Shown here one piece after another: positions 589-15,457 of a stretch of 64,000 nt of DNA (positions are counted from its first letter, which is position 1; each line of letters begins with the position of its first letter). A model generated the notes under the pieces. That model was not told the origin of the DNA and ran no database searches. It worked only from the letters and a program-made list of their open reading frames with translations. Both the position numbers and the translations under genes were made by a program. Origin of the DNA: Mariprofundus ferrooxydans PV-1 (GTDB taxonomy: Bacteria > Pseudomonadota > Zetaproteobacteria > Mariprofundales > Mariprofundaceae); contig NZ_DS022294.1 of NCBI RefSeq assembly GCF_000153765.1, forward strand, positions 620,836 to 684,835, written 5' to 3'.

Positions 589-3132
589 ATGCAAGGAGAG
601 GCCGACAGGGTAGAGACTGGAGAATCCACACTCGACTCTCTGCATTTTTTCGAGGGCCTGGACCGGATAAACAGAGCCATCCAGGGAACTAGTGACCTGA
701 ATGAAATGATGCGCAATGTGCTCGAAGAGGTGCGTTCCATCTTCGATTGCGACCGCGCTTACCTCCTCTACCCATGCAATCCTGACTCAGATTCGTGGAC
801 AGTGCCGATGGAGTCTACCTCTCTGGAATATCCCGGTGCAGGCATCATGAATGTCGATACCCCCATGGACCCGGAAGTCGCGGAGAAAATGCGCCTTCTG
901 CTGGCATGTGACGGAGCCTTAAAGTTCGGCCTCGGTCCTGAACACCCTCTTCCCTCCAATATTTCTCAACGATTCGGAATCAAATCCTTCATCGCAACCG
1001 CCCTGCATCCGAAAAGCGGTGACACATGGGAATTCGGCATTCATCAATGCTCCCACAGCCGTATCTGGACAGCCGGAGAGGAGCGACTGTTCTTGGAGAT
1101 CGGCCGACGACTGACCGACGCTCTGACCAGTCTGCTGGTCAGGCATGAACTGCAAGAGAGCGAGGCCAAGTATCGCCGTTTTGTCGAGACCTCCAGTGAG
1201 GGAATCGTAGGCCTGAACAGCAATCACATAATTACGTTCATCAATGCACGGATGGTCGGAATGATTGGCTATAGCACTGATGAACTTATCGGACATCAAC
1301 TCAGCGATTTCATATTTGAGGAAGATATCGCTGATCACGAGCGGCATATGACGCTGCGTCGCCAAGGGACTTCAGAGCAGTACGAACGCCGGTTACGCTG
1401 CAAAGATGGCAGCGAATTGTGGACACAGGTCTCGGCAAGCGTCATCAATGGTGATAGCGGAGAGTTTCAGGGCTCCTTTGCGATGCTCACCGATATCACC
1501 GAACGTAAACGCATAGAGCAGGATATTATCGCCCGCGAATGCGACTTCCGCACGCTGGTTGAGAACAGCTCTGATCCTATCCTGCGCTATGACCGCGACT
1601 GCCGGCGTACCTATGTCAATCCGGTGATTAATCAGATCAGCGGCAAGCCTATCGATTCACTGCTCGGCTACACACCTGAAGACACCCAGCTACTGAGTGA
1701 CAGCGAAGCGAGAAACCTGACGACAGCCATCCGCCAGACGTTCGACAGTGATCAGGCATGCCATGTCGATTTCAATTTTATTGATCTGAATGACGAGATC
1801 CACGGCTACGATATGCTGTTAGTACCGGAACATGACGCCGATGGCCAGGTAATGACCGTGCTCGGTGTTGCCCACGACATTACCGAACGCAAACAGGCAG
1901 AGCGAAAAATTGCTGAATCCGAACAGAAGTTCCGCAGTCTGGCAGAAAGTTTGCCAGACAACATCATCCTCTATGATCGGCAAGGATTAGCCATATACAT
2001 CAACCCATCTCTTGAAAAAATGCTAGGCGAAAATGCTGTAAAACTGATCGGAAAAAGCGTCCGTGAACGTCACCCAGACGGCAGTTATGAAGCCTACGCA
2101 CAGGCCATTGACAATGCACTCACCAGCGGTGAGGACGATGAAATTGAATTTGTTGTCCCCAATCTGGGAACGGCGACGAATCCTGTTATTCATCAGATTC
2201 GCATTGTCGTCGAGCATGACGAACAGGGTGAAGTGACTGGTGTGCTTGCCATTGGCCGCGACATCAGCGAACAGAAAAAGGCCGAAAGAGAGTTAAATGA
2301 GAAGCAACGCCTGTTGCTGGAGGCACAACAGATTGCCCATGTTGGGAACTGGCACCACGATCTGGTAACCGACGAGATGTACTGGTCGGAGGAGTTTTTC
2401 AACATTCTCGGCATCCCTCCTCAAGAACCCTCTCTCGAATTGGGCCTCTCGTTTATCCATCCCGATGATAAGCAGAAGCTGTTCAACGATATTGAGCTAC
2501 CTGTCAACAAGGATGGCGATTTTGAACAGGAGTTCCGCATCATCAGGCCGGATGGAGAGATTCGCTGGATTCATAGCCGCTGGGTACGCATCAACGGTGA
2601 GAATGGAAACGAGATCAAGCGTGTCGGTACGCATCAGGACATCACCGAACGCAAACAGGCGGAGCAGGAAATGGCGCTGCTTGAGACAGCTGTAAACCGA
2701 TCCTCCGATGCCATCTATCTCATGGACGATCAGACCACACTCTTCCACTACGTCAACGATGCCGCCTGCCGTGCTCTGGGCTATAGCCGGGAGGAGCTTC
2801 AGACCATGAGCCCGCCTGATATCGATCCGGATATCACTGACCGTAAAAACAAGGAGCTGACAAAAGAGGTGGTAGAAGGTACCCCCATCGCCTTTGAGAC
2901 CCACCATAAGACGAAAGATGGGCGAATATTCCCCGTCGAAATCCATGCCTCCTCCTTCGAATATGGCGACAAGACCTTCAGTCTCGCAGTAGCGCGCGAC
3001 ATCACCGAGCGCAAACAGGCCGAGGAGCAACTGCAGCAGGCCCAAAAAATGGAGGCACTCGGCACGCTTGTTGGCGGCATCGCTCACGACTTCAAACAAT
3101 TCGGCTACATTAGCGCAAGCGCCTGCCGATAG
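589..3132 (+). pseudogene. 5' part of a hybrid sensor histidine kinase, cut in its H-box by a mobile element
   Basis: This is the first 835 codons of a large sensor kinase, followed by 12 residues read from the inserted element. It starts at ATG 589 after GGAGGT. A GAF-type domain (about residues 20-185) is followed by five PAS modules (about 190-815), most ending in the typical DITERKQAE linker. The kinase core then begins with GGIAHDF and stops making sense. The missing part (N-box, ATPase, receiver) resumes in frame at 14354, and joining the two gives a 1202-residue GAF-PAS5-HisKA-HATPase-REC protein. As it stands, the product keeps the phospho-accepting His but lacks the catalytic ATP-binding domain, so it cannot autophosphorylate. 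No membrane segment is seen, so it is probably cytosolic. Confidence 0.95.
3094..3111. other. attL, left junction of the integrated element
   Basis: The kinase reading frame is intact through TTC at 3091-3093. The AA at 3094-3095 is common to both junctions, and element sequence begins at 3096. Element positions 3103-3111 read GGCTACATT, seven bases from the AA. This is the right arm of a reconstructed attP whose left arm AATGTAGCC lies at the other end of the element (14338-14346). Confidence 0.93.
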
Positions 3133-3141
3133 ATAGTAGGC

Positions 3142-4782
3142 TTGCCAATAAGGAGCTTATTATATGCAAAGAAAGCCTATTCCTATATCAGATTTTCCAC
3201 GCCACAACAGTTGAAAGGTGACAGCTTACGCCGCCAACTTGAAGCAAGCCGTACCTATGCGGAAAAGCATGACCTAATTCTAGACGATAGCCTACGTGAC
3301 ATTGGAATGAGTGCGTATAAAGGAAAGAACGCTACTGAAGGGGCACTGAAGGACTTTATCAAACTGGTTGAAGATGGCCATGTCGACAAGGGTTCTATTT
3401 TGATTCTGGAGAGTTTGGATAGGTTATCCCGCCAGCAGGTTTTCACGGCCTTGGGGTTATTTTCCTCTCTCCTGTCAGCAGGTGTTGAAATCGTTACTTT
3501 GGCGGATGGACAGCATTACACTTCAGAAAGCATCAACGATGTGGGTCAACTTATGTTTAGTTTGATTTCTATGAGTCGCAGCCATGAAGAATCCGCCGTA
3601 AAATCCAAACGCATATCAGCGAGTTGGGAGAACAAGCGTAAACTAGCGGTGGAGTTCAAACGACCTATGACCAATCAATGTCCAAAATGGTTGCGTATAT
3701 CAAAGGACAGAAGCTGTTTTAAAGTGATTGAAGCTCGTGCAAAGGTCATTAGATGTATCTTTGATCAGAGCATCGCAGGGACAGGACAACGGAAGATTGC
3801 AGCGGGATTGAATGAGCGTGGAGTTTCTACTTTTAATGGTGGTGATATGTGGCACTCGTCATACATTGCTAAGATCATCCGTAGTAAATCAGTTATAGGT
3901 GAATATCAGCCCAAGCAGAAAGGTGAGCCAATTGGTGAATCTATTCCTGGTTACTATCCGGCTATTGTAAGCGAGGGTATTTTTGATAAAGCACAGGCAG
4001 CCCGCGTCAGTAGAATAAATCCTTCATCAGCAGGTAGGAAGGGAGAAAAGTTTTCCAACTTATTTTCAGGTATGTGTAAATGTTTGGAGTGCCATTCGAC
4101 CTTTCGTATGATCAAGAATGGTCGTTCTCATTTATTTCGCTGCAATAGTAACTATATGGGAAATGGTTGTAAGTGCGTCAAACGCTGGCGCCATCGTGAT
4201 GTTGAAAATGCAGCATTGCTTGTAATAAGTGAGAAAATTGATTGGTTCAGTGCTTTAGGCGGCCATACAAGCAGCAAGCAAAAACTGGAATCTGAAGTAG
4301 CGATACTGAATGCAAAGCTATTGGATGTTGAAAAGCAGGTTAGTCGCTTTGCCGATCTTTTTAGCTTAGCTGAAGGTTCGATGATGACAGATGCTCGGAA
4401 AAGGTATGTGAAAGCCATGCAGAGCGCTGATGGGGTTCGCCATGATATTGAGGTAAAAGAGGCAGAGCTTCGCACCTTCACGCCAGTTCAGCATAACCTA
4501 GATAGGCTGAACCGTATTATCTTCGAACTTAGGTCAGAGACTGATGTGCACAAGCTGTATGAACTGCGTGCACAGATTAATGGGATGTTCCGTGATGTAG
4601 GGTTAAAGCTCTATTTCAATGAACATGGTGTATTTTATTACCTCAAGAAAACGAATCAAAAAGGTATTGTTTTGATTGATGAACATAAGGAAGTTCTTTC
4701 CATGGGGGCTGATCTTGAAATGCTCCAACGCTCTTTTTCTGGAATGAATGAATGTATTGAAGAGGTAAGAAATTTAGCCTGA
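3142..4782 (+). CDS. large serine recombinase (site-specific integrase of the element)
   Basis: It catalyses integration and excision of the element. The N-terminal resolvase domain (about residues 10-160) has the catalytic serine S19 in YIRFSTPQQ. A Recombinase domain follows (about 170-290, RKIAAGLNERGVST). A zinc-ribbon region (about 315-355) has Cys pairs in CKCLEC and later CNSNYMGNGCKC, then a coiled-coil segment and a C-terminal tail. The 546-residue length fits this family. TTG at 3142 is the best in-frame start because a stop lies just upstream; an AAGGAG sits inside the gene start, so initiation is uncertain. It lies 31 bases from the AA crossover, the usual place for an integrase next to its own att site. 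Confidence 0.95.
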   Translation: MPIRSLLYAKKAYSYIRFSTPQQLKGDSLRRQLEASRTYAEKHDLILDDSLRDIGMSAYKGKNATEGALKDFIKLVEDGHVDKGSILILESLDRLSRQQVFTALGLFSSLLSAGVEIVTLADGQHYTSESINDVGQLMFSLISMSRSHEESAVKSKRISASWENKRKLAVEFKRPMTNQCPKWLRISKDRSCFKVIEARAKVIRCIFDQSIAGTGQRKIAAGLNERGVSTFNGGDMWHSSYIAKIIRSKSVIGEYQPKQKGEPIGESIPGYYPAIVSEGIFDKAQAARVSRINPSSAGRKGEKFSNLFSGMCKCLECHSTFRMIKNGRSHLFRCNSNYMGNGCKCVKRWRHRDVENAALLVISEKIDWFSALGGHTSSKQKLESEVAILNAKLLDVEKQVSRFADLFSLAEGSMMTDARKRYVKAMQSADGVRHDIEVKEAELRTFTPVQHNLDRLNRIIFELRSETDVHKLYELRAQINGMFRDVGLKLYFNEHGVFYYLKKTNQKGIVLIDEHKEVLSMGADLEMLQRSFSGMNECIEEVRNLA

Positions 4783-4870
4783 AGTTCTTTGTGCACAAGG
4801 CGTGCACAAGAAATAGCTAAAGTGGGGATAAGTTCAGTCGATAGGCTGTAAAATACTATTGGAGGTGCTT

Positions 4871-5125
4871 ATGCCAAAACCATCAACGAAATCATCAGGA
4901 ATCAGAATGCCCACAGAGCTTTATAACTGGATAGATCAGTATGCTGCTAAAAAGAGAGTGTCTCGCAGTCAGTGCGTTTGCGACTTAGTTAAAAAAGCCA
5001 GAGGAAGTCTTTCCCGAAGAGTTGAAACTAAACAGCCATGGACGATCCATGCTGCCAAAGCAGGTGAATATGTTTCGGTTGGCATCATTCTGGTGGACAT
5101 TCAATGTATGGCCGGTTTGCTGTAG
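4871..5125 (+). CDS. small ribbon-helix-helix DNA-binding protein
   Basis: An 84-residue protein starting at ATG 4871, five bases after GGAGG. The N-terminal half has the pattern of a ribbon-helix-helix fold: a short strand (SSGIRMPTELYNWIDQYA) followed by two helices (KKRVSRSQCVCDLVKKA). The C-terminal 40 residues match nothing I recognise. It follows the recombinase by 88 bases on the same strand. In mobilizable elements such proteins act as excision factors, relaxosome accessory proteins or repressors of the recombinase or mob genes; which applies here is not visible. No toxin partner is adjacent, so an antitoxin role is less likely. Confidence 0.65.
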   Translation: MPKPSTKSSGIRMPTELYNWIDQYAAKKRVSRSQCVCDLVKKARGSLSRRVETKQPWTIHAAKAGEYVSVGIILVDIQCMAGLL

Positions 5126-5272
5126 CTAATATAAGTGTAGTTTCTCTATAAAAAGATAACTGGCATTTCAAGTGGAAGCTTACCCATTGCAAGAGTATTT
5201 AAGTTTAAATAGATAAGCTTGTCCTTAGAAATGGTAGTGAAAGCACATGATTTTGATGGAGTTGTTTTAGTT

Positions 5273-5471
5273 AGTCGACTTTTTTTTGTCATGTCAGATG
5301 CGTTGAAAACTAATGACAATAAAAAGTTGACTTTAGGCTCACAGGATTGAAGTGGTTTTTTTTATAATCTATCAGTCGATTTTTTGTTGTTATGACATAT
5401 CATAAAAAAGTAGAATCCGCTTGTTCTTTCTACTTTTTTTTGCATATACAATAACAATCCAAAAAGTGACT
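5273..5471. repeat. two-hairpin repeat, copy 1 (modules A and B)
   Basis: Module A (5273-5332) opens with AGTCGACTTTTT and closes with AAAAAGTTGACT, making a long imperfect hairpin whose arms also pair over TGTCAT and ATGACA. Module B (5374-5471) opens with AGTCGATTTTTTG and closes with AAAAAGTGACT, and holds an inner stem AAAAAAGTAGAA / TTCTACTTTTTT. The 41 bp between the modules is unrelated to the matching spacer in copy 2. A second A+B pair occurs at 8925-9127, so the two copies bracket the four cassette genes as direct repeats. The rest of 5126-5846 is AT-rich and holds only the cassette promoter and leader. Confidence 0.92.
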
Positions 5472-5646
5472 CCTAGCTACGTTGTTTTACAGCTTAGAGT
5501 TCATACCGATGCGTGATTAGTATGAATCCTTAAATTGAGAATATGTTTTATTAAAAGAACGAGCCTTGATTATTGATATAAAGAACCAATTCCTAAAAGT
5601 CAAGTTAAAAATTTATGTAAATGATTGTAAAATAACGACATTTAGC

Positions 5647-5674
5647 TTGACAAAGCCGAAATATTTGATATATT
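5647..5674 (+). promoter_or_regulatory. sigma70-type promoter of the AAA ATPase cassette
   Basis: TTGACA at 5647-5652 is a consensus -35 box. TATATT at 5669-5674 is a good -10 box, 16 bases away. The first supported start codon downstream is ATG 5847, leaving an untranslated leader of about 165 bases. That leader contains a short open frame starting ATGCCTACA at 5773, mirrored by the same bases at the true start of the ATPase. Confidence 0.6.
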
Positions 5675-5846
5675 AAATCACCACTTATGCATTTTTAACT
5701 TTGTGATAACTATGAATCTTTGAGGTGGTACTTCCCATGCAGATTAAAAACTAACCCTTTTTAGAATTACCTATGCCTACAATTTATTGATATTTTTTTA
5801 CCGCTATTTCGCGGATGGATTGCTATTGCCCAATGGAGAGTTACTG

Positions 5847-6965
5847 ATGCCTACAAAAGAAGAGTTAGACCAGATATTTGCATCACCTAAGAAGCGTGAA
5901 AGGAAATCAGAAGGTTTCGCAAAGCGAGGTTCATTTAAAAATTTAAACAGTACTGAGGATATTCACGAGCCTGCATATTCGATGTGTCTATTTGATAGGA
6001 TGGAAGTACTGCAAAAGTTAAAAACAGTTGGACAGCAAAAAGATTCCCAAGAGATTCAAGCTTGTCTTAGAAAGATGCAAATAAATGGAGGACAATCGTT
6101 TCTTGCTCCCCTGCCAGCAGGTTATGAAGCATTGCTTGATAACTTGCTGAATATGTACCCTCATTTTCACAACGTTGTTAACTTTATTAAGCAGCGAATG
6201 CGGTTAAATGCGCTAAAAGAACACCCCGCCCTAGAGTTTGGAGCATCTATTCTTTTGGATGGTCCTGCAGGCTGTGGAAAGACTTCTTTTCTGATGAAAT
6301 TGAGCAGAATCTTTGAAACGGAATTTGCTTCGATTTCATGTGCAGCAGCCACAAATAATTTTGATTTAACTGGCTTGTCAGCAGGCTGGGGAAATGGTCG
6401 TCCGGGTAAAATATATGATTTATTGATTAATTCTAGATGTCCTAATCCAGTGATACTTCTCGATGAAATTGATAAAACCAATAGCCAAGCTGAAAAACAG
6501 AATTTCACAGGAGCCTTATATGGACTACTAGAAAAAAATAACGCCAAATCATTCCAAGATGAGTTTATAGGAATAGCGATGGATGCGAGTAAGATTAATT
6601 GGTTTGCCACAAGTAATGATACTACCTGCTTAGATGAGCCTATTCGTGATCGGTTTGAGGTTATCTCGGTTAGTGCTCCAAGCGAACAGCATTTGGAACA
6701 AATTATTCCCCAGTTATTTCAATCTACTGTATTGGAAATTGGTCTTCAAAGTTCTTTTGCAATAGAGCTGAATGAGAGTGTGGTTAGAAAGGTGCTGTCA
6801 TACCGCAATATTTCAATTCGTCGCATCCAGTCTGTTCTAAAATCTGGCTTAGCAAATGCGGCATGTCGTGTGAAAAGAGGAGAAAAAAAGGTGTCATTAT
6901 TAGCATTAGATATTCCTGAATATCACTCGATTGAGACAAAACAAAAAATAGGATTTATTCACTGA
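5847..6965 (+). CDS. AAA+ ATPase, Lon-like ATPase module without a protease domain
   Basis: A 372-residue single-module AAA+ protein. Walker A is GPAGCGKT (residues 139-146), Walker B is ILLDEID (about 203-209), a sensor-1 Asn lies in FATSND, and an arginine-finger-like RDRFE follows. The stretch after Walker B (ALYGLLEKNN, then FATSND) follows the order seen in Lon ATPase domains, but the chain ends after the small AAA subdomain with no Ser/Lys protease. The N-terminal 130 residues are not recognised. ATG 5847 follows GGAG at good spacing; an earlier in-frame TTG at 5787 is weaker. Its stop overlaps the next gene's start by one base, so the two are translationally coupled. The substrate is unknown. 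Confidence 0.88.
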   Translation: MPTKEELDQIFASPKKRERKSEGFAKRGSFKNLNSTEDIHEPAYSMCLFDRMEVLQKLKTVGQQKDSQEIQACLRKMQINGGQSFLAPLPAGYEALLDNLLNMYPHFHNVVNFIKQRMRLNALKEHPALEFGASILLDGPAGCGKTSFLMKLSRIFETEFASISCAAATNNFDLTGLSAGWGNGRPGKIYDLLINSRCPNPVILLDEIDKTNSQAEKQNFTGALYGLLEKNNAKSFQDEFIGIAMDASKINWFATSNDTTCLDEPIRDRFEVISVSAPSEQHLEQIIPQLFQSTVLEIGLQSSFAIELNESVVRKVLSYRNISIRRIQSVLKSGLANAACRVKRGEKKVSLLALDIPEYHSIETKQKIGFIH

Positions 6966-7714
6966 TGAAGATACATATCCTTTCTGACTTGCATCTTGAA
7001 TGTGCTTCATTTGAGCCTGCTGTAACTTCTGCTGATCTGATAGTCCTAGCTGGAGACATTGGTGTTGGTGTGACTGGTATTAACTGGGCGAAAGAGTGTT
7101 TTCAAGTTCCTGTACTGTATGTACCAGGCAATCATGAGTTCCATGATCCATCGATGTTGATGGATGAGCATATAGCTTTGATGCAACAGGCATGTTCGGG
7201 ATCAAATGTGATGCTTATGGATAACAAAACTACAGTAATCAATGGAGTACGGTTTATTGGGTCTACTCTATGGACTGACTTGCAAAAATTTAAATCGATA
7301 CTGTTTTGTGATGCTGACAGAATTATATCGGAGTATGAGATCAACCAACATGCTGGAGGTTTGAAGCATTTTGATTGGGTGTATGCACAAACACTGTTTG
7401 AAAGAAACAAGCTGTGGCTTCAATCTGAATTGGCGCGATCATTTAATGGAAAAACAGTTGTGGCAACTCATCATGCACCTTCGAGGAAAAGCATAGCTCC
7501 TCAATATAAGGGGAATGATTGGAATCCATGCTTTGCATCTGATCTAGAGTCATTAATTCTTGATGTGGACTTGTGGATTCATGGCCATACGCACAGTAGC
7601 TTGGATTATGTATTAAATGGCGCTCGCGTGGTCTGTAATCCTCGGGGATACCCTAACCCTTTAGGTGGGTGGGAGAATGGATTTTTTACCCCGTCGATGG
7701 TGGTAGAGATATGA
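6965..7714 (+). CDS. calcineurin-like metallophosphoesterase
   Basis: A 249-residue metallophosphoesterase with the full set of metal ligands in order: DLHLE near the N-terminus, GDIG, GNHEFHD, a THHAPS block, and HGHTH near the C-terminus. The family hydrolyses phosphomonoesters or phosphodiesters, including nucleic acid ends and cyclic nucleotides; sequence alone does not choose. There is no signal peptide, so it is cytosolic. The start overlaps the ATPase stop, so the two are probably co-expressed and may work together. A hairpin with stem CCCTGA/TCAGGG lies just after the stop (about 7734-7753). Confidence 0.9.
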   Translation: MKIHILSDLHLECASFEPAVTSADLIVLAGDIGVGVTGINWAKECFQVPVLYVPGNHEFHDPSMLMDEHIALMQQACSGSNVMLMDNKTTVINGVRFIGSTLWTDLQKFKSILFCDADRIISEYEINQHAGGLKHFDWVYAQTLFERNKLWLQSELARSFNGKTVVATHHAPSRKSIAPQYKGNDWNPCFASDLESLILDVDLWIHGHTHSSLDYVLNGARVVCNPRGYPNPLGGWENGFFTPSMVVEI

Positions 7715-7912
7715 AAGCATTCAACTTTCATGCCCTGATGGCTGTTTCAGGGTCATGCTTCCTATATGGATAGTGATAGTGATTGACCTTGGATATGTCG
7801 ATAGTCGAATGCTTCCAAACATGATGATTTCAACTGTGTGGGATTTGAGCCTTCAGAATGATGTGGTTGAACCGATAAATAATGAGTTAACAAGATATTG
7901 AGGGATTAGGGC

Positions 7913-8458
7913 ATGAATAACAAAAAACTACTGATACTGGATATTGATGAAACATTAATCCATGGCTCCCAGCATCGTTTGGATACTGAACCTGATGCTA
8001 TATCGGATTGGTGTTATCTTTATAAGCGGCCACATGTTGATTCGTTTATGAAGTTTTGCCGTGAGCATTATAAGGTAGCTATTTGGACTACTGCATCGCC
8101 TGAGCATGCCAAGTTGGCTTTGGGGGCGATATGCAGCCCTGACTATCCCTTTGAGTTCATATGGACGGGCAATCGTTGCACTCAAGTTGTTGACTCAATC
8201 GGCATGTGTGATTTTGGTGGTGGTTATCATTGGGTTAAAAACTTAAAGAAGGTTAAGCGCATTGGTTTCCGTCTGGAACAAACAATCATGGTTGATGATA
8301 CGCCATCGATGCTTGAGAAGAACTACGGAAACCTGATCCAAATTGAAAAATTCTTAGGTGCTCAGGATGACCATGAACTTCAGCGGTTAATGCCATATTT
8401 GCTTCAATTAAAGGATGCGGACAATATTCGAAAAATTGAAAAGCGATGTTGGCGATAG
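7913..8458 (+). CDS. HAD phosphatase of the FCP1/NLI-interacting-factor type
   Basis: A 181-residue protein with the HAD nucleophile motif DIDETL (Asp10, Asp12), the threonine motif in VAIWTTAS, and a late acidic VDDTP motif. The KRPHVDSFMKFC block after the nucleophile is typical of FCP1/SCP-like phosphatases, best known for dephosphorylating the RNA polymerase II tail in eukaryotes. Bacterial members are mostly uncharacterised and common on mobile DNA. It starts at ATG 7913 after a GAGGGATTAGGG stretch, 198 bases after the metallophosphoesterase on the same strand. A protein, nucleotide or nucleic-acid 3'-phosphate could be the substrate; I cannot tell which. Confidence 0.82.
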   Translation: MNNKKLLILDIDETLIHGSQHRLDTEPDAISDWCYLYKRPHVDSFMKFCREHYKVAIWTTASPEHAKLALGAICSPDYPFEFIWTGNRCTQVVDSIGMCDFGGGYHWVKNLKKVKRIGFRLEQTIMVDDTPSMLEKNYGNLIQIEKFLGAQDDHELQRLMPYLLQLKDADNIRKIEKRCWR

Positions 8459-8553
8459 AATTTCATATATATAGTACTGATGACTGTATTGAGGCATATG
8501 GTTCAGTTCGATATATTGAATGCCATGATACTAAAATAAAAGAGGTTGAAAAT

Positions 8554-8904
8554 ATGAATCCATGTTTGGAAGATGTATTATATGAATTATTTGAAAGATT
8601 GCCACATATTGATAATGATCAAAGAATGGATCTTTATACTGAGTTAGAAAATAGTGATCAAAATATTGATACTTTTTTGCGTATTACTGTTCGAATAAAA
8701 AAAGACCTTCAGGATTTTCAAAAGTCTCTTGATGCTGACAAGATAAGAGAGGCACTTGAAAATGATGAAGACTTAATTGATATTGAACTTGATAACACTG
8801 CAGGAGAGTTAATTGAAGCGATTGATAAAACCTATGAAATTCTTGGAGAGTCATGGAAAGATATTCCTGTTGATATTTTTGAGGAATGTATAAGTTTAGA
8901 TTGA
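8554..8904 (+). CDS. small acidic protein of unknown function
   Basis: I do not recognise this 116-residue protein. It is strongly acidic and predicted mostly helical, rich in Asp, Glu and Ile (for example DLIDIELDNTAGELIEA). ATG 8554 follows AGAGGT at good spacing. An in-frame ATG at 8446, overlapping the phosphatase gene, would give 152 residues but has a poor ribosome site. As the last gene of the cassette it could be an inhibitor, a DNA mimic or an adaptor of the upstream enzymes. That is only a guess from charge and position. Confidence 0.6.
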   Translation: MNPCLEDVLYELFERLPHIDNDQRMDLYTELENSDQNIDTFLRITVRIKKDLQDFQKSLDADKIREALENDEDLIDIELDNTAGELIEAIDKTYEILGESWKDIPVDIFEECISLD

Positions 8905-8924
8905 TGTTTAAGTGTAAAAATATG

Positions 8925-9127
8925 AGTCGACTTTTTTTTGTCATGTCAGATACGTTGAAAGCTATGACAATAAAAAGTTGACTCCCTATACACCCTCTGA
9001 ATATAGGCATATTGTGAGATCAAATTAATTAGTCGATTTTTTGTTGTTATGACATATCACAAAAAAGTAGAATTCGTTTGTCCTTTCTACTTTTTTTTGA
9101 TATACAATAACAATCCAAAAGTTGACT
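8925..9127. repeat. two-hairpin repeat, copy 2 (modules A and B)
   Basis: Module A (8925-8983) and module B (9031-9127) repeat those at 5273-5332 and 5374-5471 with few changes, in the same orientation and order. The 47 bp between them is unrelated to the copy-1 spacer. This copy lies between the end of the acidic gene (+) and the end of the relaxase gene (-), where a bidirectional terminator would be useful. The AAAAAAGTAGAA / TTCTACTTTTTT stem in module B could serve that role. Confidence 0.92.
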
Positions 9128-9145
9128 CCTAAACGCCCCTGCTTA

Positions 9146-10573
9146 TTAACTGACTGAACCTGTGGATGATAATGCGAGGGTAGACTTTGGCATATCGATA
9201 TTTGGATGTTTCTGCTGTAGTAACTTCAAAGACTGGTGCGTACTACGTAAATTATCTGAAATTTGGGAGAGCCTGTTCTTCATTGTGTGAAGTTCATCCT
9301 TCCTTTGTTGACTCTTTGTTTGTTCAAACTCAAGCATAGAGGCTGCTTTATCAATTAATTTTGGATGGGCATATGCCGTGTCTAGCAGTTTATTATATTG
9401 ATGTTGGGTTTCTCTGAGTGCACGGTCGGCTTGCTTCATATACTGAGTTTCAGTACTCCTGAATCCATGATTCCACCAGCAGGATAATTTTGCCCTGATA
9501 TTTGACAATTTTATCGGAGCATTCTTGATTAGAATGTAGGCATCATAGCGTTTTTTTGCTTTTGCATGTTCTATGCTCGCGTGGTTCATGGCAAGGTGAT
9601 AAACGCTGCCTGACTTGGTGTTGGAAAGGTATGCTTGAATAGCTTGCTGCAATGTTTGAATCATAGGTTTGGCAGAATTCAATTGATTAAGTTCTTTGCG
9701 AATAATCTGTTTGTCACCAATCAATTTTTCATAATGATGAAGCAATGTATCACGTTGAACCTTTGCCATATCAGATAGAAGATATTGGTTTTTCTGAATA
9801 ACTTTTTCCCATCGCTGGTAGCGTTCATTCTTGATGATATCTGGTTTAATATCTTCCTTGGACTCATCAGCCTGTTTTTTTGTTCTTCTGTGTAGGTTCC
9901 AGGATTCTGCGCCGACCTTAGGCTGTGGAATCAGATCAATACCTTGATCTGCATAACTTCTACAATCAATGCGTGCAGGTACATCAAAATCAGCCAAGGT
10001 CTGGTTACACAGAACTTCCCATAATTGACGAATTTCCAGTAGCTTATCACTGGATTTAGCAGGTTGTATTCCACGACCTCGTGTTTTTGCCTGCCATGAA
10101 CGATCTTTGCGGCACCCTCCACTTTCTGGTCTCTTGTTATTTACGCGTTTGAAATAATGTTTTTGATCGCGCTCATGACCATCATCAATACGCTCAGAGA
10201 ATTGAAGGTGCACATGAGGATTCATAGCACCATCACTGGCTTTCGTATTGTGAATGGCAAAGCTGAATGCATGGTTATTTCCGCATGCTTCTTCAGCAAG
10301 CTGTTTTGCCAAATCTATTTGCTGAGCAAGCGGCAGCTCCCTTGGCAATGACACTTCCAATTCTCGATAGACAGTGCCATTGGCACGCTCAAATTCATCC
10401 GATGCCTGCCAGAACAAGACTGGCTTGTCGGCAGCCCATTTGGGCATGTTTCCATGCTCAATATGAACTACGCCTCGCTTATGTGCATACTTTTCAATTG
10501 CACAAATATAAGTGAAGTGACGGGCAGCATTACCCTTCTCTCCGATCTTCAATGTTAAATGATACGTTGCCAT
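9146..10573 (-). CDS. mobA: MobA/MobL-family relaxase
   Basis: The relaxase nicks the element's oriT and leads the strand into a recipient through a helper transfer system. The 475-residue protein starts at ATG 10573 after AGGTG. The relaxase domain fills roughly the first 200 residues and contains the metal-binding histidine motif NPHVHLQFSER. A long helical, probably coiled-coil tail follows. No primase domain is fused, unlike RSF1010 MobA. It reads away from a putative IncQ-type oriT about 100 bases upstream and converges on the cassette. No coupling protein or mating-pair genes are present. Confidence 0.93.
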   Translation of the reverse strand: MATYHLTLKIGEKGNAARHFTYICAIEKYAHKRGVVHIEHGNMPKWAADKPVLFWQASDEFERANGTVYRELEVSLPRELPLAQQIDLAKQLAEEACGNNHAFSFAIHNTKASDGAMNPHVHLQFSERIDDGHERDQKHYFKRVNNKRPESGGCRKDRSWQAKTRGRGIQPAKSSDKLLEIRQLWEVLCNQTLADFDVPARIDCRSYADQGIDLIPQPKVGAESWNLHRRTKKQADESKEDIKPDIIKNERYQRWEKVIQKNQYLLSDMAKVQRDTLLHHYEKLIGDKQIIRKELNQLNSAKPMIQTLQQAIQAYLSNTKSGSVYHLAMNHASIEHAKAKKRYDAYILIKNAPIKLSNIRAKLSCWWNHGFRSTETQYMKQADRALRETQHQYNKLLDTAYAHPKLIDKAASMLEFEQTKSQQRKDELHTMKNRLSQISDNLRSTHQSLKLLQQKHPNIDMPKSTLALSSTGSVS

Positions 10574-10659
10574 CAGGGCGCACCTATTCCTTATAAAATT
10601 GAAATAGGTAACGTAAAAAACAGAACTCAAATAAATTAAATATGCATGGGATTTTAAGG

Positions 10660-10712
10660 GCTTGCCCTTAACGCGCCGTTTCTCGCTAGAGAAACGCCTA
10701 AGCGCGCTCTTT
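10660..10712. other. putative oriT, RSF1010/IncQ-like
   Basis: The inverted repeat GTTTCTC-GCTA-GAGAAAC (10678-10695) is followed by GCCTAAGCGCGCTCT. RSF1010 oriT, as I recall it, has GTTTCTC-GAA-GAGAAAC followed by CGGTAAATGCGCCCT, so the hairpin arms are identical and the nic side is similar. A second small inverted repeat AAGGGC/GCCCTT lies just before it, and GGCC-AGAG-GGCC just after. It sits directly upstream of the relaxase gene, the normal location. The rest of 10574-10837 is an AT-rich divergent promoter region. Confidence 0.8.
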
Positions 10713-10783
10713 AGGCCAGAGGGGCCTGTTGCGTAAATCTATTTATCGGGAGATAATTAGAAAACTTGAGAAATTAAAATTCT

Positions 10784-10802
10784 CTTGCCCCCCCCCTGCA
10801 AG
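10784..10802. repeat. run of nine C bases inside a small inverted repeat
   Basis: CTTGC (10784-10788) and GCAAG (10798-10802) form a stem whose loop is almost all C; the uninterrupted C run covers 10788-10796. It lies about 40 bases before the start of the element's kinase gene, in the promoter or leader. Homopolymers of this length slip readily, so expression could vary between cells; this is not demonstrated. Confidence 0.8.
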
Positions 10803-10837
10803 TTTCATACCATATCGGGTGAGGAGATAGGAGGGCT

Positions 10838-13474
10838 ATGTTGAAAAAACGGACACTAGAATTTCCCGTAGCCGTAGCCGTAGCCGTAGCCGTAGCCGTA
10901 GCCGTAGCCCTTTCTCAACTTAAAAGCCATCTGAACGAAGAAGCAATAACCAACCTTACCACTGTCAACAATAGTATTCAAATCTCATTACATCGGCAAA
11001 TTCGAGAAATATCCCTATCATCCCAACAAATCCTGAAGAATGAGTTGGTATATCAAAATATATACAAGTTGCTTCAGAAACCAGACATATCCAAAGGTGA
11101 ACGATTCAATTTAAGAGAATTACTTGCTAAACATATATTCCCTCAAGGGTATAAAGGATTTTATTTGATTGGCAAGAACCACAAGATTCTTATTTCGATG
11201 AAGGAGCATGATACTCACAAACCCCCACCTTCTGTCGTGTTGAACGCAATTGAACGATTAAACCAAGGAGAGCCTTTTATTGTAACACATGCTTTTGTGT
11301 TTGATGGAAAAACCTCAATGTGGGGAATCGCAAGCGTAATGAACGATACGGGAAAAGTGTTCGGTTATTTTGCGCTTTCTCTAGGTGCTGATTTTCGTTT
11401 CTCATCAACAACTTTAACATCAGGTATCAGTTACGAAACAGGAGAAACCTATCTTGTCGATGAGAATGGCCTGATGCTTTCAGAGTCACGATTCAAGGAA
11501 CATCTGGTGATGACTGGGTTGCTCGCTGAAGGTGAGCCGAGCACAAAACATCTGAGAGTAGCCGACCCAGGTGTTAACCTGCTTGAAGCAAATAATGAAG
11601 TGGAGTTACCAAAAGATAAGTGGCCATTAACATTCGGGGTTCAACAAGCCCTGACAACCCACCGCATGGGGTGGAGCACCACTGGTTATAGAGACTATCG
11701 CGGCGTACCCGTAATTGGTGTGTGGCGCTGGGATGTTCCATTACAGGCGGCAATTATTACTGAAATCGATGAGGATGAAGCGCTAGATAAGTATGTATAT
11801 GTGCGCAATGTCATGCTGGCTTTGTTGTTGGTTGTCGTAATAGGAAGCGTAGTTGCTGTGATGGCGTATAGTCGCCTGCGAGTCCGCTCTGAACGGGAAG
11901 CCAACTATCACCGGAATTTATTGCTTGAATCCACAGCAGGAGCGATTTACGGCATCGATATGGAGGGACGCTGTACATTTGTTAACCGGGAGTTTCTTAG
12001 CTTGCTTGGATATGAGGAGCAGGAAGTTCTTGGCCAAACAATCCACAGCCTGATTCACCACTCTTACCCTGATGGTCGTCCCTATCCAGTAGAAGAGTGC
12101 AATATTTATAAGGCGCATCAAAACCAAAGCAGAATCCACAGAGACGATGAATCTTTCTGGACGAAAGACGGTGAAGAAATCAAGGTGGAATACTGGGCCC
12201 AACCATTGCTCGAAGATGGTAAGGCTGTAGGAAGTGTTGTTACTTTTGTCGATATCACTGAGAAAAGAATGCTTGAGTGTGAGAAGGAGCAATTAGAAAA
12301 ACAGGTTCATCACTCACAGCGACTTGAAAGCCTAGGAATCCTAGCCGGTGGAATTGCACATGATTTCAATAACATTCTCGCAGCAATTCTTGGAAATGCG
12401 TCTTTGATATCATCATATGTTATGAAAGACCCTCTTCGCGCAAAAGAGAGGGCTGATAGAATTGTTCAATCTGCAGAAACAGCCGGTGTACTATGCAAAC
12501 AAATGTTGGCTTATTCAGGCAAGGGGCAATTTATATTGAAATCAATTTCACTGTCCCCTCTGGTGGAGGAAATGACTCACCTGCTGGAAGTGTCTATTGA
12601 TAAGTCAGTTGTTATTAAATATTACTTGGCTGACAGGCTGCCCAAGGTCATGGTTGATGAGGCACAAATACAGCAAGTTGTAATGAACCTCGTAACCAAT
12701 GCCAATGAGGCAATTGAAGGTAAAAGCGGCGTTATTTCAATCACAACTGGAGTTATGTATGCTGATGAGCAATATCTTTCAGATTGCCATGCTGGAGAGC
12801 ACACATCAGCAGGAAGATTTGTCTATGTTGAAGTAAGTGATAACGGCTGCGGCATGGATAAGGAAACAGTGCAAAAAATCTTCGACCCCTTCTTTACAAC
12901 AAAAGTGACTGGCCGGGGACTTGGAATGAGCGCGACTTTGGGAATCGTGCGCGGCCACCATGGGGCTTTAAAAGTGTACTCCGAGAAGGGGCGAGGCACG
13001 ACCTTTAAGTTATTGCTGCCAATTAGCAAAGAAGAGCACATTCATACCGACACAGCCACCAAGCAAAGCAATATTTTACCTCCAAGGTTTTTGGAAAAAG
13101 CTGTGTTAGTCGTTGATGATGAAGAAACAGTTCGTGAAATGGCCTGCATGATGCTGGAAGAACTAGGATTTAAAACCATCCCTGCATCTGATGGTGAGGA
13201 GGCGCTATCCTTGTATCGACGCCATCAAGGTGACATATGCCTTGTCTTAACAGACTTAACCATGCCTCACATGGATGGTAGGGACTTATTTATTCGACTG
13301 AAGCAACTAAATTCGGATTGTCACATTATTCTAAGCAGTGGCTATAACTCTCAGGAAGCGATTCAGCAGTTTTCGGGTAAGGGGCTGGCAGGATTTATCC
13401 AAAAGCCTTATACAGAGGACACTCTAAGGCAGGAAATCATTAAGGTGCTTGGAGAAGAAAGTGATAATGCCTAA
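10838..13474 (+). CDS. element-borne membrane hybrid histidine kinase (Cache-like sensor, PAS, HisKA, HATPase, REC)
   Basis: An 878-residue sensor kinase. The first membrane segment is almost wholly (Val-Ala)7. A periplasmic sensor of about 300 residues (Cache-like from its position and helical start) is followed by a second membrane segment near residues 325-348 and a PAS domain (about 365-480). The H-box is GGIAHDFNN (near residue 507). The ATPase has DNGCGM and an FDPFFTTK block. The C-terminal receiver has its Asp in LTDLTMPHMDG and a KPY lysine motif. ATG 10838 follows GGAGGG closely. The next gene, a PstS-like protein, overlaps its end, suggesting the periplasmic protein may feed this sensor. 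The H-box DNA resembles the site where the element integrated. Confidence 0.92.
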   Translation: MLKKRTLEFPVAVAVAVAVAVAVALSQLKSHLNEEAITNLTTVNNSIQISLHRQIREISLSSQQILKNELVYQNIYKLLQKPDISKGERFNLRELLAKHIFPQGYKGFYLIGKNHKILISMKEHDTHKPPPSVVLNAIERLNQGEPFIVTHAFVFDGKTSMWGIASVMNDTGKVFGYFALSLGADFRFSSTTLTSGISYETGETYLVDENGLMLSESRFKEHLVMTGLLAEGEPSTKHLRVADPGVNLLEANNEVELPKDKWPLTFGVQQALTTHRMGWSTTGYRDYRGVPVIGVWRWDVPLQAAIITEIDEDEALDKYVYVRNVMLALLLVVVIGSVVAVMAYSRLRVRSEREANYHRNLLLESTAGAIYGIDMEGRCTFVNREFLSLLGYEEQEVLGQTIHSLIHHSYPDGRPYPVEECNIYKAHQNQSRIHRDDESFWTKDGEEIKVEYWAQPLLEDGKAVGSVVTFVDITEKRMLECEKEQLEKQVHHSQRLESLGILAGGIAHDFNNILAAILGNASLISSYVMKDPLRAKERADRIVQSAETAGVLCKQMLAYSGKGQFILKSISLSPLVEEMTHLLEVSIDKSVVIKYYLADRLPKVMVDEAQIQQVVMNLVTNANEAIEGKSGVISITTGVMYADEQYLSDCHAGEHTSAGRFVYVEVSDNGCGMDKETVQKIFDPFFTTKVTGRGLGMSATLGIVRGHHGALKVYSEKGRGTTFKLLLPISKEEHIHTDTATKQSNILPPRFLEKAVLVVDDEETVREMACMMLEELGFKTIPASDGEEALSLYRRHQGDICLVLTDLTMPHMDGRDLFIRLKQLNSDCHIILSSGYNSQEAIQQFSGKGLAGFIQKPYTEDTLRQEIIKVLGEESDNA
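10868..10909 (+). repeat. hexanucleotide microsatellite (GTAGCC)7 inside the kinase gene
   Basis: Seven perfect copies of GTAGCC encode (Val-Ala)7, residues 11-24 of the element kinase. The unit is six bases, so gain or loss of copies keeps the frame but lengthens or shortens the only hydrophobic stretch of the first membrane segment by two residues per unit. Confidence 0.97.
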
Positions 13475-14297
13475 GTCTATATACCTCACGCTCATAGCTA
13501 TTTGTTTTTCCTGTATGTTATTGCAGCAGGCTCAGGCAGAAGTCATCACAATAGCTGGTTCATCAACCATTCAGAAATTCATCAAGCTGGCTGCGAATGT
13601 TTACTCATCTCGCCACCCAGATATCCAATTCATTATTGGCAGTGGCGGTTCTACTGCGGGTTTCGCAAAAGTAATCGATGGGCGTATTCAAATAGGAATG
13701 ATGAGTCGGGAATTAACTGACGATGAAAAAAAGAAACTTGGTTCAATCCAGCATCTTGTGGTGGGTTTGGACGCAGTCGTTCCGGTTGTTTCACGGGAAG
13801 TATTTCAAGCAGGAATCAAACTAGTCGATTTACCTACGCTTGCTCGGATATATCAAGGGAAGATAGTAAGCTGGAACCAATTAGGGGGGGCAAATCGAAA
13901 AATTTTAGTTGCTGACAAAGAGGTGCACAGGGGAACTCGCTTTGTCTTTGCCATGGCCGTGTTTGGCGACCCGAAAGCACGAGCAACTAAGAGAGCAATT
14001 ATTCTTGGCGATAATCAGGAAGTGCTCAATTTGGTGTCATCGAGCGACCAGGCAATCGGTTATGTCAGCTTCGCTTATGCCAGCGGAGATGTGAAGGCTC
14101 TTTCCTTGAAAGTTGACGATAAAGTCATTTCTCCTACACTCAGTAACATCAGGAATGGTTCTTTTCCTATGGCACGGAAACTTTATCTATTAGTTCCCAA
14201 GAATGTCCCCGGTTACGTTGCTGATTTCGTCCGGTTTGTTCAATCTGAAGAAGCCATGGCTCTTGTGAAGAAGGCGGGTTACATCCCTGTAAATTGA
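13467..14297 (+). CDS. PstS-like periplasmic phosphate/oxyanion-binding protein
   Basis: A 276-residue secreted binding protein. A signal peptide ends near AQA (about residue 25), then the mature protein opens with ITIAGSSTIQKF, the typical PstS-family start where the GSST loop contacts phosphate. IGSGGSTAGF and IGMMSREL fit the same fold. ATG 13467 overlaps the end of the kinase gene, so the two are translationally coupled. No PstC, PstA or PstB transporter genes are nearby, so it probably serves sensing, or is a stand-alone scavenger, rather than import. It ends 54 bases before the element's right junction. Confidence 0.88.
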   Translation: MPKSIYLTLIAICFSCMLLQQAQAEVITIAGSSTIQKFIKLAANVYSSRHPDIQFIIGSGGSTAGFAKVIDGRIQIGMMSRELTDDEKKKLGSIQHLVVGLDAVVPVVSREVFQAGIKLVDLPTLARIYQGKIVSWNQLGGANRKILVADKEVHRGTRFVFAMAVFGDPKARATKRAIILGDNQEVLNLVSSSDQAIGYVSFAYASGDVKALSLKVDDKVISPTLSNIRNGSFPMARKLYLLVPKNVPGYVADFVRFVQSEEAMALVKKAGYIPVN

Positions 14298-14337
14298 TAC
14301 TTCCCCTTTGTGAAGTCGAATCTCTAAGAGATTGACC

Positions 14338-14355
14338 AATGTAGCCTAACATGAA
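14338..14355. other. attR, right junction of the integrated element
   Basis: AATGTAGCC at 14338-14346 is the left arm of the reconstructed attP, followed by seven bases and the shared AA at 14354-14355. Kinase coding sequence resumes at 14356. The last three element bases, 14351-14353, are ATG in frame with the downstream kinase fragment, so the element supplies a start codon right at the crossover. Confidence 0.93.
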
Positions 14356-15457
14356 CAACAAGCTGGCAGCCATCACCGGCAACCTCTATCTGGCCCGGAG
14401 CGGTATCGACTCTCGCTCCGAGACAGCAGCACGCCTGCAATCGGTGGAGACATTGAGCTTCGAAGCAGCCAGCATGGTACAGCAACTGCTTACCTTCGCT
14501 CGCAAAGGCAAGGTCGAGCAGAAGCCTCTGGCACTAGTCCCTTTCATCAAGGAGACGGCCAAACTCGACAGCGTCGCCATTCCGGAAAACATACAATTTT
14601 CCATGAGCTACTGCGAAAATTCCCTGCTGATAACAGGCGATATAACCCAGCTGCAACAGCTCTTCCTTAACCTGCTGACCAATGCGCGCGATGCACTGGA
14701 GGGAGTGGATCAGGCCCGCATCGACCTGTCGCTGCAATACTACGAACCCGACAGCGACTTTATCGAACGCCATCCGGAAGCAGAAAATAAGGATGCCTTT
14801 GCCTGTATGCGACTATCCGATAACGGCCATGGCATCGCGCCTGAGCACATGGAACAGGTGTTTAATCCGTTTTTTACCACCAAGGAGGTGGGAAAAGGCA
14901 CGGGGCTGGGACTTGCAATGGCATACGGCATAGTGACATCACATCACGGGGTCATTGAGGTTGAGAGTACACCCGAACAGGGTAGCTGCTTCTCAATTTA
15001 CCTGCCTCTTCAAAGCAATGCAAATACAGTGCTACCGATAGAACAACAGCAGGAGGTCATCAACGGAGATGGCGAAACTATTCTGCTTGCCGATGATGAT
15101 GAGAATGTACTGCAGACCTTCGCTAAGGTACTGACATCGATTAATTACCGTGTGCTGACCGCTCGTGATGGCCGCGCAGCGCTCGAAAGCTACAGGCAAC
15201 ACAGGGGTGAAATAGATCTGGTCATACTTGATATCATTATGCCCAAATTAACAGGCCCGGATGTGGCCCGGCAGATCAGGGAGATAGCTCCTGGTGCAAA
15301 ACTGCTTTTTGCGACCGGTTACGATAAAGAGTCGGATCATCATGGCATGACAGGCAATATCGAGGTTCTGGATAAACCATATGATCTGGCAAAGGTCAGC
15401 AAAAGCATTCGGCGCATACTGGAGCGGGAATCGACCCGAAAGGCCGATCGCCGCTAA
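14351..15457 (+). pseudogene. 3' part of the interrupted hybrid kinase (N-box, HATPase, receiver)
   Basis: This 368-codon frame continues the kinase from 589-3093. It opens MNNKLAAITGN, where NNKLAA is the second half of the H-box, then the dimerisation helix, an ATPase domain (DNGHGI, FNPFFTTKEVGKGTGLGL) and a receiver domain with Asp in LDIIMPK. It lacks the phospho-accepting His and all sensor domains. The ATG comes from the element and lies 54 bases after the PstS-like gene, so a truncated ATPase-receiver protein could be made from the element's transcript. No good ribosome site is visible. Precise excision would restore the full gene. Confidence 0.93.

What the first reader, a model, noticed from the sequence alone, without database searches (positions are those of the whole stretch)
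5273..9127. Undescribed four-gene cassette bracketed by direct copies of a two-hairpin repeat
AAA ATPase, metallophosphoesterase, FCP1-like HAD phosphatase and acidic protein lie between two copies of an A+B hairpin pair. Module arms share AGTCGA...TTTTT and AAAAAGT.GACT termini, while the short spacers between A and B differ. This is the layout expected of an exchangeable cargo slot: recombination between the repeats would remove all four genes and leave one A+B pair. A coupled AAA ATPase and two different phosphatases on a mobile element suggest a phage-defence or nucleic-acid-end-processing system not matching a named type that I know.
Basis: partly seen in the sequence, partly recalled or inferred. 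Interest (0 to 1): 0.8.

Follow-up and report, generated by a model that had tools for sequence, protein, structure and literature searches.

The report
Mobile AAA-phosphoesterase module with paired hairpins
A small mobile element in this bacterium carries a motor protein and a phosphoesterase that recur together next to restriction and toxin genes in related bacteria, and in two genomes they always travel with a conserved pair of DNA hairpins, which suggests an undescribed defence-like module.

Summary
Two direct copies of a two-hairpin unit (A 57/60 and B 91/98 identical; spacers and flanks at chance) bracket four genes.

The unit lies in an ~11.3-kb mobilizable element with a large serine recombinase (LSR) and a MobL relaxase, inserted in a histidine-kinase gene. 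Sister elements show the slot between LSR and MobL: empty in three, filled in the window and in one sister (AAA, MPE, acidic ORF, then a single A+B).

The conserved core is AAA+MPE. Eight of ten non-Lon AAA loci in the class have the phosphoesterase adjacent, often beside restriction-modification, AbiE, HipA or TIR genes. HAD and the acidic ORF are optional.

A and B are covariation-supported hairpins. Covariance searches of 78 class genomes find them in two only, in the same four AAA-MPE regions; three empty sisters lack them. A+B therefore tracks the AAA-MPE cargo. The second, bracketing copy is peculiar to the window.

Best reading: a mobile, defence-like AAA+/phosphoesterase module with a linked cis hairpin pair. 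What the hairpins do is unresolved.

The parts
3092..14352 (.). integrative mobilizable element (approximate ends) splitting a PAS histidine-kinase gene
   Evidence: host kinase frame broken after GGIAHDF (~3091) and resumed at ..NNKLAAITGN (~14351); low GC inside; ends inferred, not proven
3142..4782 (+). large serine recombinase (Resolvase + Recombinase + Zn ribbon)
   Evidence: Pfam; homologs in 12 of 78 class genomes
4871..5125 (+). small ribbon-helix-helix-like ORF following the LSR
   Evidence: weak PHROG repressor hits; similar DNA in L237, L238, L241
5273..5332 (+). hairpin A, copy 1
5374..5471 (+). hairpin B, copy 1 (similarity runs on to CCTA, 5475)
5647..5674 (+). promoter of the AAA operon (TTGACA-16-TATATT, TG before it)
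   Evidence: stretch shared with L072 and L036 upstream regions
5847..6965 (+). Lon-type AAA+ ATPase without a protease domain
   Evidence: PF00004; TIGR00763 E 1.8e-27 over residues 131-348 only
6965..7714 (+). calcineurin-like metallophosphoesterase (MPE)
   Evidence: PF00149, phrog_1649; metal-site residues invariant in 11 of 11
7913..8458 (+). NIF/FCP1-like HAD phosphatase (accessory)
   Evidence: PF03031 E 1.6e-32; PDB CTD small phosphatase 3pgl E 2e-10
8554..8904 (+). acidic ORF (net charge -22); ORF call may start at 8446
   Evidence: no convincing family match
8925..8983 (+). hairpin A, copy 2, 20 nt after the acidic ORF
9031..9127 (+). hairpin B, copy 2, between convergent acidic ORF and MobL
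9146..10630 (-). MobA/MobL relaxase
   Evidence: PF03389 E 2.8e-29; homologs in 5 of 78 class genomes

Best explanation
A Lon-type AAA+ ATPase and a calcineurin-like phosphoesterase form a recurrent two-gene module, with optional HAD phosphatase and acidic ORF. It rides as cargo in the LSR-MobL slot of an integrative mobilizable element and in other mobile regions. In this genus it travels with a cis-acting pair of conserved hairpins (A and B). Shown: anatomy, recurrence of the AAA-MPE pair, neighbouring defence genes, filled and empty slots, conserved hairpin structure, and hairpins only in AAA-MPE regions. Inferred: the ATPase remodels or senses a target and gates the phosphoesterase, which cleaves phosphodiester or phosphomonoester bonds of invading (or hairpin) nucleic acid; the HAD trims the products; A+B marks the end of the module and may be its own cognate site. 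The second A+B copy of the window probably arose when a module landed in, or recombined with, an element that already had an A+B pair, because the two spacers are unrelated.
For: 8 of 10 non-Lon AAA loci of the class have MPE adjacent, with a clear score gap to the Lon proteases (contexts). Neighbours include HsdM/HsdS/TIR (L027), type III Mod/Res (L036), N6-methylase/AbiEii/HipA (L192), HsdS (L193) and HipA/SLOG (L189). Sister elements: L072 filled; L235, L236 and L237 empty. Hairpin models find B and A in 2 of 78 class genomes only, in four regions that also carry AAA-MPE (one further weak row looks like an ordinary terminator), and B in 2 of 398 phylum genomes, the same two. Covariation: B 7 of 35 pairs and A 4 of 17 pairs with changes on both sides, above shuffles and slid controls. 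The three empty sisters have no such palindromes.
Against: AAA-MPE in four other genomes (G022, G030, G081, G083) has no A+B, so the hairpins are not needed by the pair in general; G022's contig is only 5.8 kb. The 4-of-4 versus 0-of-3 contrast is small (p 0.029), comes from related elements and mostly from two genomes. In two of the four regions the hairpins lie 20-30 kb from AAA-MPE and element ends were not determined. MPE without AAA is common (6 of 14 class loci; 11 of 11 regions examined outside the class). No activity or phage data.
Confidence: 0.5

Rival explanations
1. A+B is a transcription terminator or insulator at convergent gene ends and has nothing to do with the function of AAA-MPE.
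For: B2, the sister B' and the C3 B-like site lie between convergent genes; the inner hairpin of B has an A-tract, stem and T-tract; A starts 7-24 nt after an ORF stop in three regions.
Against: The terminator scan calls none of the window's A/B sites. A and the outer arms of B have T-runs on the 5' side and A-runs on the 3' side, the wrong way round. Copy 1 lies between tandem genes. LSR-MobL sisters with convergent ends lack it.
Confidence: 0.3
2. A+B is a recombination or exchange site that lets cargo be swapped.
For: Direct copies exactly bracket the cargo; hairpins near identical while spacers and flanks are unrelated; slot filled or empty among sisters.
Against: The filled sister has a single pair and the empty ones none; no other cargo found between copies; no dedicated recombinase seen beyond the LSR, whose junctions lie elsewhere.
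Confidence: 0.15
3. A+B is a single-strand DNA signal (Frpo/ssi-like promoter or primer site) used when the element enters a recipient as single strand.
For: Conserved as structure with covariation; on mobilizable elements near relaxase genes; Frpo elements adopt secondary structure that mimics duplex and carry promoter boxes (PMC11541004, passages); a TTGTTA-18-TAGAAT match lies in the B arm in both copies.
Against: Promoter-like matches in the region are at chance (22 found, 18.2 expected). Genes beyond A2-B2 are antisense. Empty sister elements with MobL lack it.
Confidence: 0.15
4. AAA-MPE is not defence but a maintenance or conflict module of mobile elements (for example copy control or post-transfer repair).
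For: All four hairpin-bearing copies are on integrated regions with integrase and relaxase; no phage data.
Against: Neighbourhoods rich in R-M, AbiE, TIR and HipA genes.
Confidence: 0.3

Closest known systems
IetAS defence system (AAA ATPase + protease)
   Same: AAA protein weakly matches IetA models (PADLOC E 2.5e-6; NCBIfam IteA E 0.0011); ATPase plus hydrolase pair on mobile DNA
   Different: partner is a metallophosphoesterase, not a subtilase-type protease (that partner is recalled); score far below the NCBIfam cut-off (18.2 vs 510)
PADLOC candidate PDC-S10
   Same: all 11 MPEs match weakly (best E 2.3e-12)
   Different: a candidate model only; no AAA partner or hairpin is given in the library output
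SbcCD / Mre11-Rad50
   Same: ATPase with a calcineurin-like phosphoesterase; SbcCD acts on hairpins and palindromes (PMC6265447, PMC3315005: search listing only)
   Different: ATPase is Lon-type AAA+, not an SMC-like coiled-coil protein; no sequence match of the MPE to Mre11 in PDB searches
Lon protease
   Same: AAA+ module (7ksl E 2.8e-37)
   Different: no protease domain; 372 aa
Integrative mobilizable elements with serine recombinase
   Same: LSR plus MobL relaxase, split target gene
   Different: targets the H-box of histidine-kinase genes; carries this cargo
Phage metallophosphoesterase Gp48 (PMC12287305, abstract)
   Same: MPE acting in phage-host conflict, harming host DNA integrity
   Different: phage-encoded counter-defence of a mycobacteriophage; no AAA partner mentioned in the abstract; homology not tested

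Membership tests
Integrative mobilizable element | site-specific integrase and relaxase, no own mating apparatus | tested here: met
   LSR and MobL by Pfam; no secretion genes recognised among ORFs of 3.1-14.3 kb
Integrative mobilizable element | split target gene restored on excision | tested here: inconclusive
   host kinase frame interrupted and resumed; sisters show the same junction motif; excision not testable
IetAS | IetA-type ATPase above the family cut-off | tested here: not met
   NF042959 18.2 bits against cut-off 510
IetAS | adjacent protease gene | tested here: not met
   adjacent gene is a metallophosphoesterase
Lon protease | C-terminal protease domain | tested here: not met
   Pfam, NCBIfam and PDB matches cover only the AAA part
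SbcCD / Mre11-Rad50 | SMC-type ATPase with coiled coil | tested here: not met
   ATPase is PF00004 AAA
SbcCD / Mre11-Rad50 | MPE with conserved metal-site motifs | tested here: met
   DxH, GD, GNHE, HH and HGHTH invariant in 11 of 11; the role of these motifs is recalled
SbcCD / Mre11-Rad50 | hairpin cleavage | not testable with these tools
   needs biochemistry
Integron cassette (attC) | attC-type hairpin with tyrosine integron integrase | tested here: not met
   element integrase is a serine recombinase; hairpin ends AGTCGAC..GTTGACT do not fit RYYYAAC..GTTRRRY (recalled consensus, compared by eye)
Intrinsic terminator | GC-rich stem followed by T-run | tested here: not met
   scan finds none at A or B in the window
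Frpo/ssi single-strand promoter | hairpin with -35/-10 boxes upstream of leading genes | tested here: inconclusive
   weak boxes in B arm, overall count at chance
Rfam RNA families | match above gathering score | tested here: not met
   window 3000-15000

The most novel reading that the evidence does not exclude
A+B is a functional fifth component of the AAA-MPE(-HAD-acidic) system: the AAA+ motor and phosphoesterase act on their own conserved DNA (or RNA) hairpins, for example as cognate substrate, self-mark or licensing site. This would be an ATPase/phosphoesterase module addressed by a palindrome pair and spreading as cargo among mobile elements, with copying or conversion of the hairpins producing the bracket seen in the window.
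Probability: 0.22. Interest if true: 0.85.

Novelty: new variant of a known kind. Interest (0 to 1): 0.58.

Why it matters
If right, it adds an AAA+/phosphoesterase pair to the systems that mobile elements carry, and links it to a conserved structured DNA or RNA element, which none of the libraries searched here describes. The family of kinase-targeting elements with filled and empty slots gives a natural experiment in which both the pair and the hairpins can be tested.

Tried and rejected
A+B as oriT: rejected as less likely, because a MOBQ-like nick motif (motif recalled) lies upstream of MobL at about 10650-10740, and MobL-bearing sisters lack A+B. A+B as LSR attachment sites: rejected, the junctions are at ~3091 and ~14351. 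Plasmid AAA relatives looked at by annotation: five regions without an annotated MPE; two with AAA next to MPE (L039, whose AAA aligns with ours; L040, whose AAA looks FtsH-like and is probably another family). Acidic ORFs of three regions: homology not shown (z 1.6, 2.1 and -0.2). Literature: metallophosphoesterase + AAA ATPase + defense system + phage, and calcineurin-like phosphoesterase + antiphage + AAA, gave 0 papers; metallophosphoesterase + anti-phage gave 5, none listed as an AAA-MPE system; integrative mobilizable element + serine recombinase + histidine kinase gave 0. These searches cover open-licence PMC only.

Full report
Observation. The window holds two direct copies of a two-hairpin unit: A 5273-5332 and 8925-8983, B 5374-5471 and 9031-9127. 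They are not chance: patterns from the arms occur only there, A is 57/60 and B 91/98 identical, yet the spacers between A and B and the outer flanks are no more alike than shuffled sequence. Each folds much better than shuffles. Between them lie AAA, metallophosphoesterase (MPE), HAD and an acidic ORF.

The carrier. The region is an element of about 11.3 kb that splits a PAS histidine-kinase gene inside the GGIAHDF|NN motif (~3091 and ~14351), with lower GC than its flanks. It carries a large serine recombinase, a small RHH-like ORF, the four genes, a MobL relaxase on the other strand, and its own histidine kinase and phosphate-binding-like protein. The recombinase has relatives in 12 of 78 and MobL in 5 of 78.

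Filled and empty slots. Four other elements have LSR and MobL convergent. Three are empty: L235 (461 bp between them), L236 (3 bp) and L237 in the same genome (420 bp, holding only the RHH-like ORF). One, L072 in genome G011, is filled with AAA, MPE and an acidic ORF, then a single A'+B' pair next to MobL, and has no HAD and no second pair. So there is a cargo slot, but the A+B bracket does not define it.

The core of the cargo. A class-wide search with the AAA protein gives ten loci at E <= 3.8e-50 and then a gap to matches at E >= 1.6e-20, whose long open frames and scores fit Lon proteases. Eight of the ten have MPE beside AAA: two in G000, two in G011, and one each in G022, G030, G081 and G083 (in G022 a 163-aa ORF lies between). 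The two in G001 do not, since G001's only MPE hit is on another contig. Counted from MPE, 8 of 14 class loci have AAA (11 of 78 genomes have MPE). Outside the class I looked at 11 regions, the best-scoring part of a draw in which 51 of 398 genomes (class members included) had MPE: none has AAA, and one has HAD beside MPE. HAD is found in 12 of 78 genomes at E <= 0.001, partial hits included, mostly without AAA or MPE in the stretches held; HAD beside MPE is seen in the window, L028, L207, a divergent copy in L027, and by annotation in L041. The AAA is a Lon-type module without protease. The MPE keeps every metal-site residue in 11 of 11 relatives.

Neighbourhood. Beside AAA-MPE lie HsdM, HsdS and a TIR protein (L027), type III Mod and Res (L036), an N6-methylase, AbiEii and HipA (L192), HsdS (L193), and HipA and a SLOG protein (L189). 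In L191, of three neighbours scanned, one is a second phosphoesterase, one matches DUF948 below its cut-off and one has no family. No control set of random loci was counted, so enrichment is an impression.

The hairpins. A first model of B from three copies (R1) found two further sites in the class, one in G000 (E 5.0e-7) and one in G011 (E 1.9e-6), besides A sites and reverse-strand reads of known sites; one further weak row in G011 (E 0.0075) looks like an ordinary terminator. A second model (R2) finds the G000 site again at E 1.5e-9 although it was not in the model, and finds nothing outside G000 and G011 in 398 phylum genomes. The A hairpin was aligned from five places, one of them a perfect 21-bp palindrome in the G000 contig-C3 region. 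Its model (R3), built from all five, finds no others in 78 genomes beyond one weak match to B2. Pair counts exceed shuffled and slid controls for A (4 of 17 pairs changed on both sides) and B (7 of 35) on most measures. A palindrome scan of 13 stretches (about 128 kb) gave nine strong palindromes; six are A or B, three are others (L027, L072 downstream of LSR, L189), and the imperfect L053 pair and B1 were missed. The rest of the window has only two weak overlapping ones.

Link between hairpins and cargo. A and B sites fall in four regions: the window element, L072, the tyrosine-integrase region of G011 (A+B at ~677.0 kb, AAA-MPE at ~699.5-701.3 kb) and that of G000 contig C3 (B at ~1169.3 kb, A at ~1172.4 kb, AAA-MPE-HAD at ~1196.3-1198.9 kb). 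All four carry AAA-MPE. The three empty LSR-MobL sisters have neither (Fisher p 0.029; small, related sample). AAA-MPE in four other genomes lacks A+B. In three regions A begins 7-24 nt after the stop of an acidic ORF, but these ORFs are not shown to be related. I saw no such ORF beside the hairpins of the C3 region.

Reading. The unit is best described as a mobile AAA+/phosphoesterase module with optional parts and a linked hairpin pair. The bracket in the window most simply reflects a second A+B pair from another lineage, since the spacers are unrelated. Mechanism beyond this is inference: an ATPase gating a phosphoesterase is the logic of SbcCD, whose substrates include hairpins (search listing), but the ATPase here is of another family. 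Terminator, single-strand signal and recombination-site readings remain open. A terminator scan does not call these sites, and Rfam has no match above a gathering score.

Known relatives. Closest library entries: PADLOC PDC-S10 for the MPE (11 of 11, best E 2.3e-12) and IetA for the AAA (far below cut-off). I found no paper on an AAA-MPE system in the searches named under Tried and rejected.

Noticed in passing
window ~3091 and ~14351; L237, L235, L240, L241, L072: A family of large-serine-recombinase elements sits in the H-box (GGIAHDF|NN) of PAS histidine-kinase genes; left junctions read K-(Q/Y)-FGYI in several of them.
   Followed up: partly
window 10838-14297: The element carries its own histidine kinase, with an intact copy of the target motif, and a phosphate-binding-like protein.
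   Followed up: no
window 5230-5275: Just before A1 an open frame reads MVVKAHDFDGVVLVS, like the start of a HAD phosphatase cut off by hairpin A; may be chance.
   Followed up: no
window 5647-5800; L072 and L036 upstream of AAA: Conserved promoter (TTGACA ... TATA) and a leader with GAGGTGG shared by three AAA-MPE operons.
   Followed up: partly
window ~10650-10740: Inverted repeats and a CCTAAGCGCGCTCTT stretch upstream of MobL resemble a MOBQ-type oriT (motif recalled).
   Followed up: no
L070 1255-1420 (G000 contig C3): B-like site between convergent integrase and relaxase genes lies inside a larger palindrome (CGGTTCGCA ... TGCGAACCG).
   Followed up: partly
window 10860-10910: Tandem GTAGCC repeats give an AVAVAVAV stretch at the start of the element's kinase; possible phase-variable tract.
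   Followed up: no
L191, L192: In L192 the AAA is part of a longer protein; small ORFs of 61-63 aa follow MPE directly in L192 and L191; possible further component.
   Followed up: no
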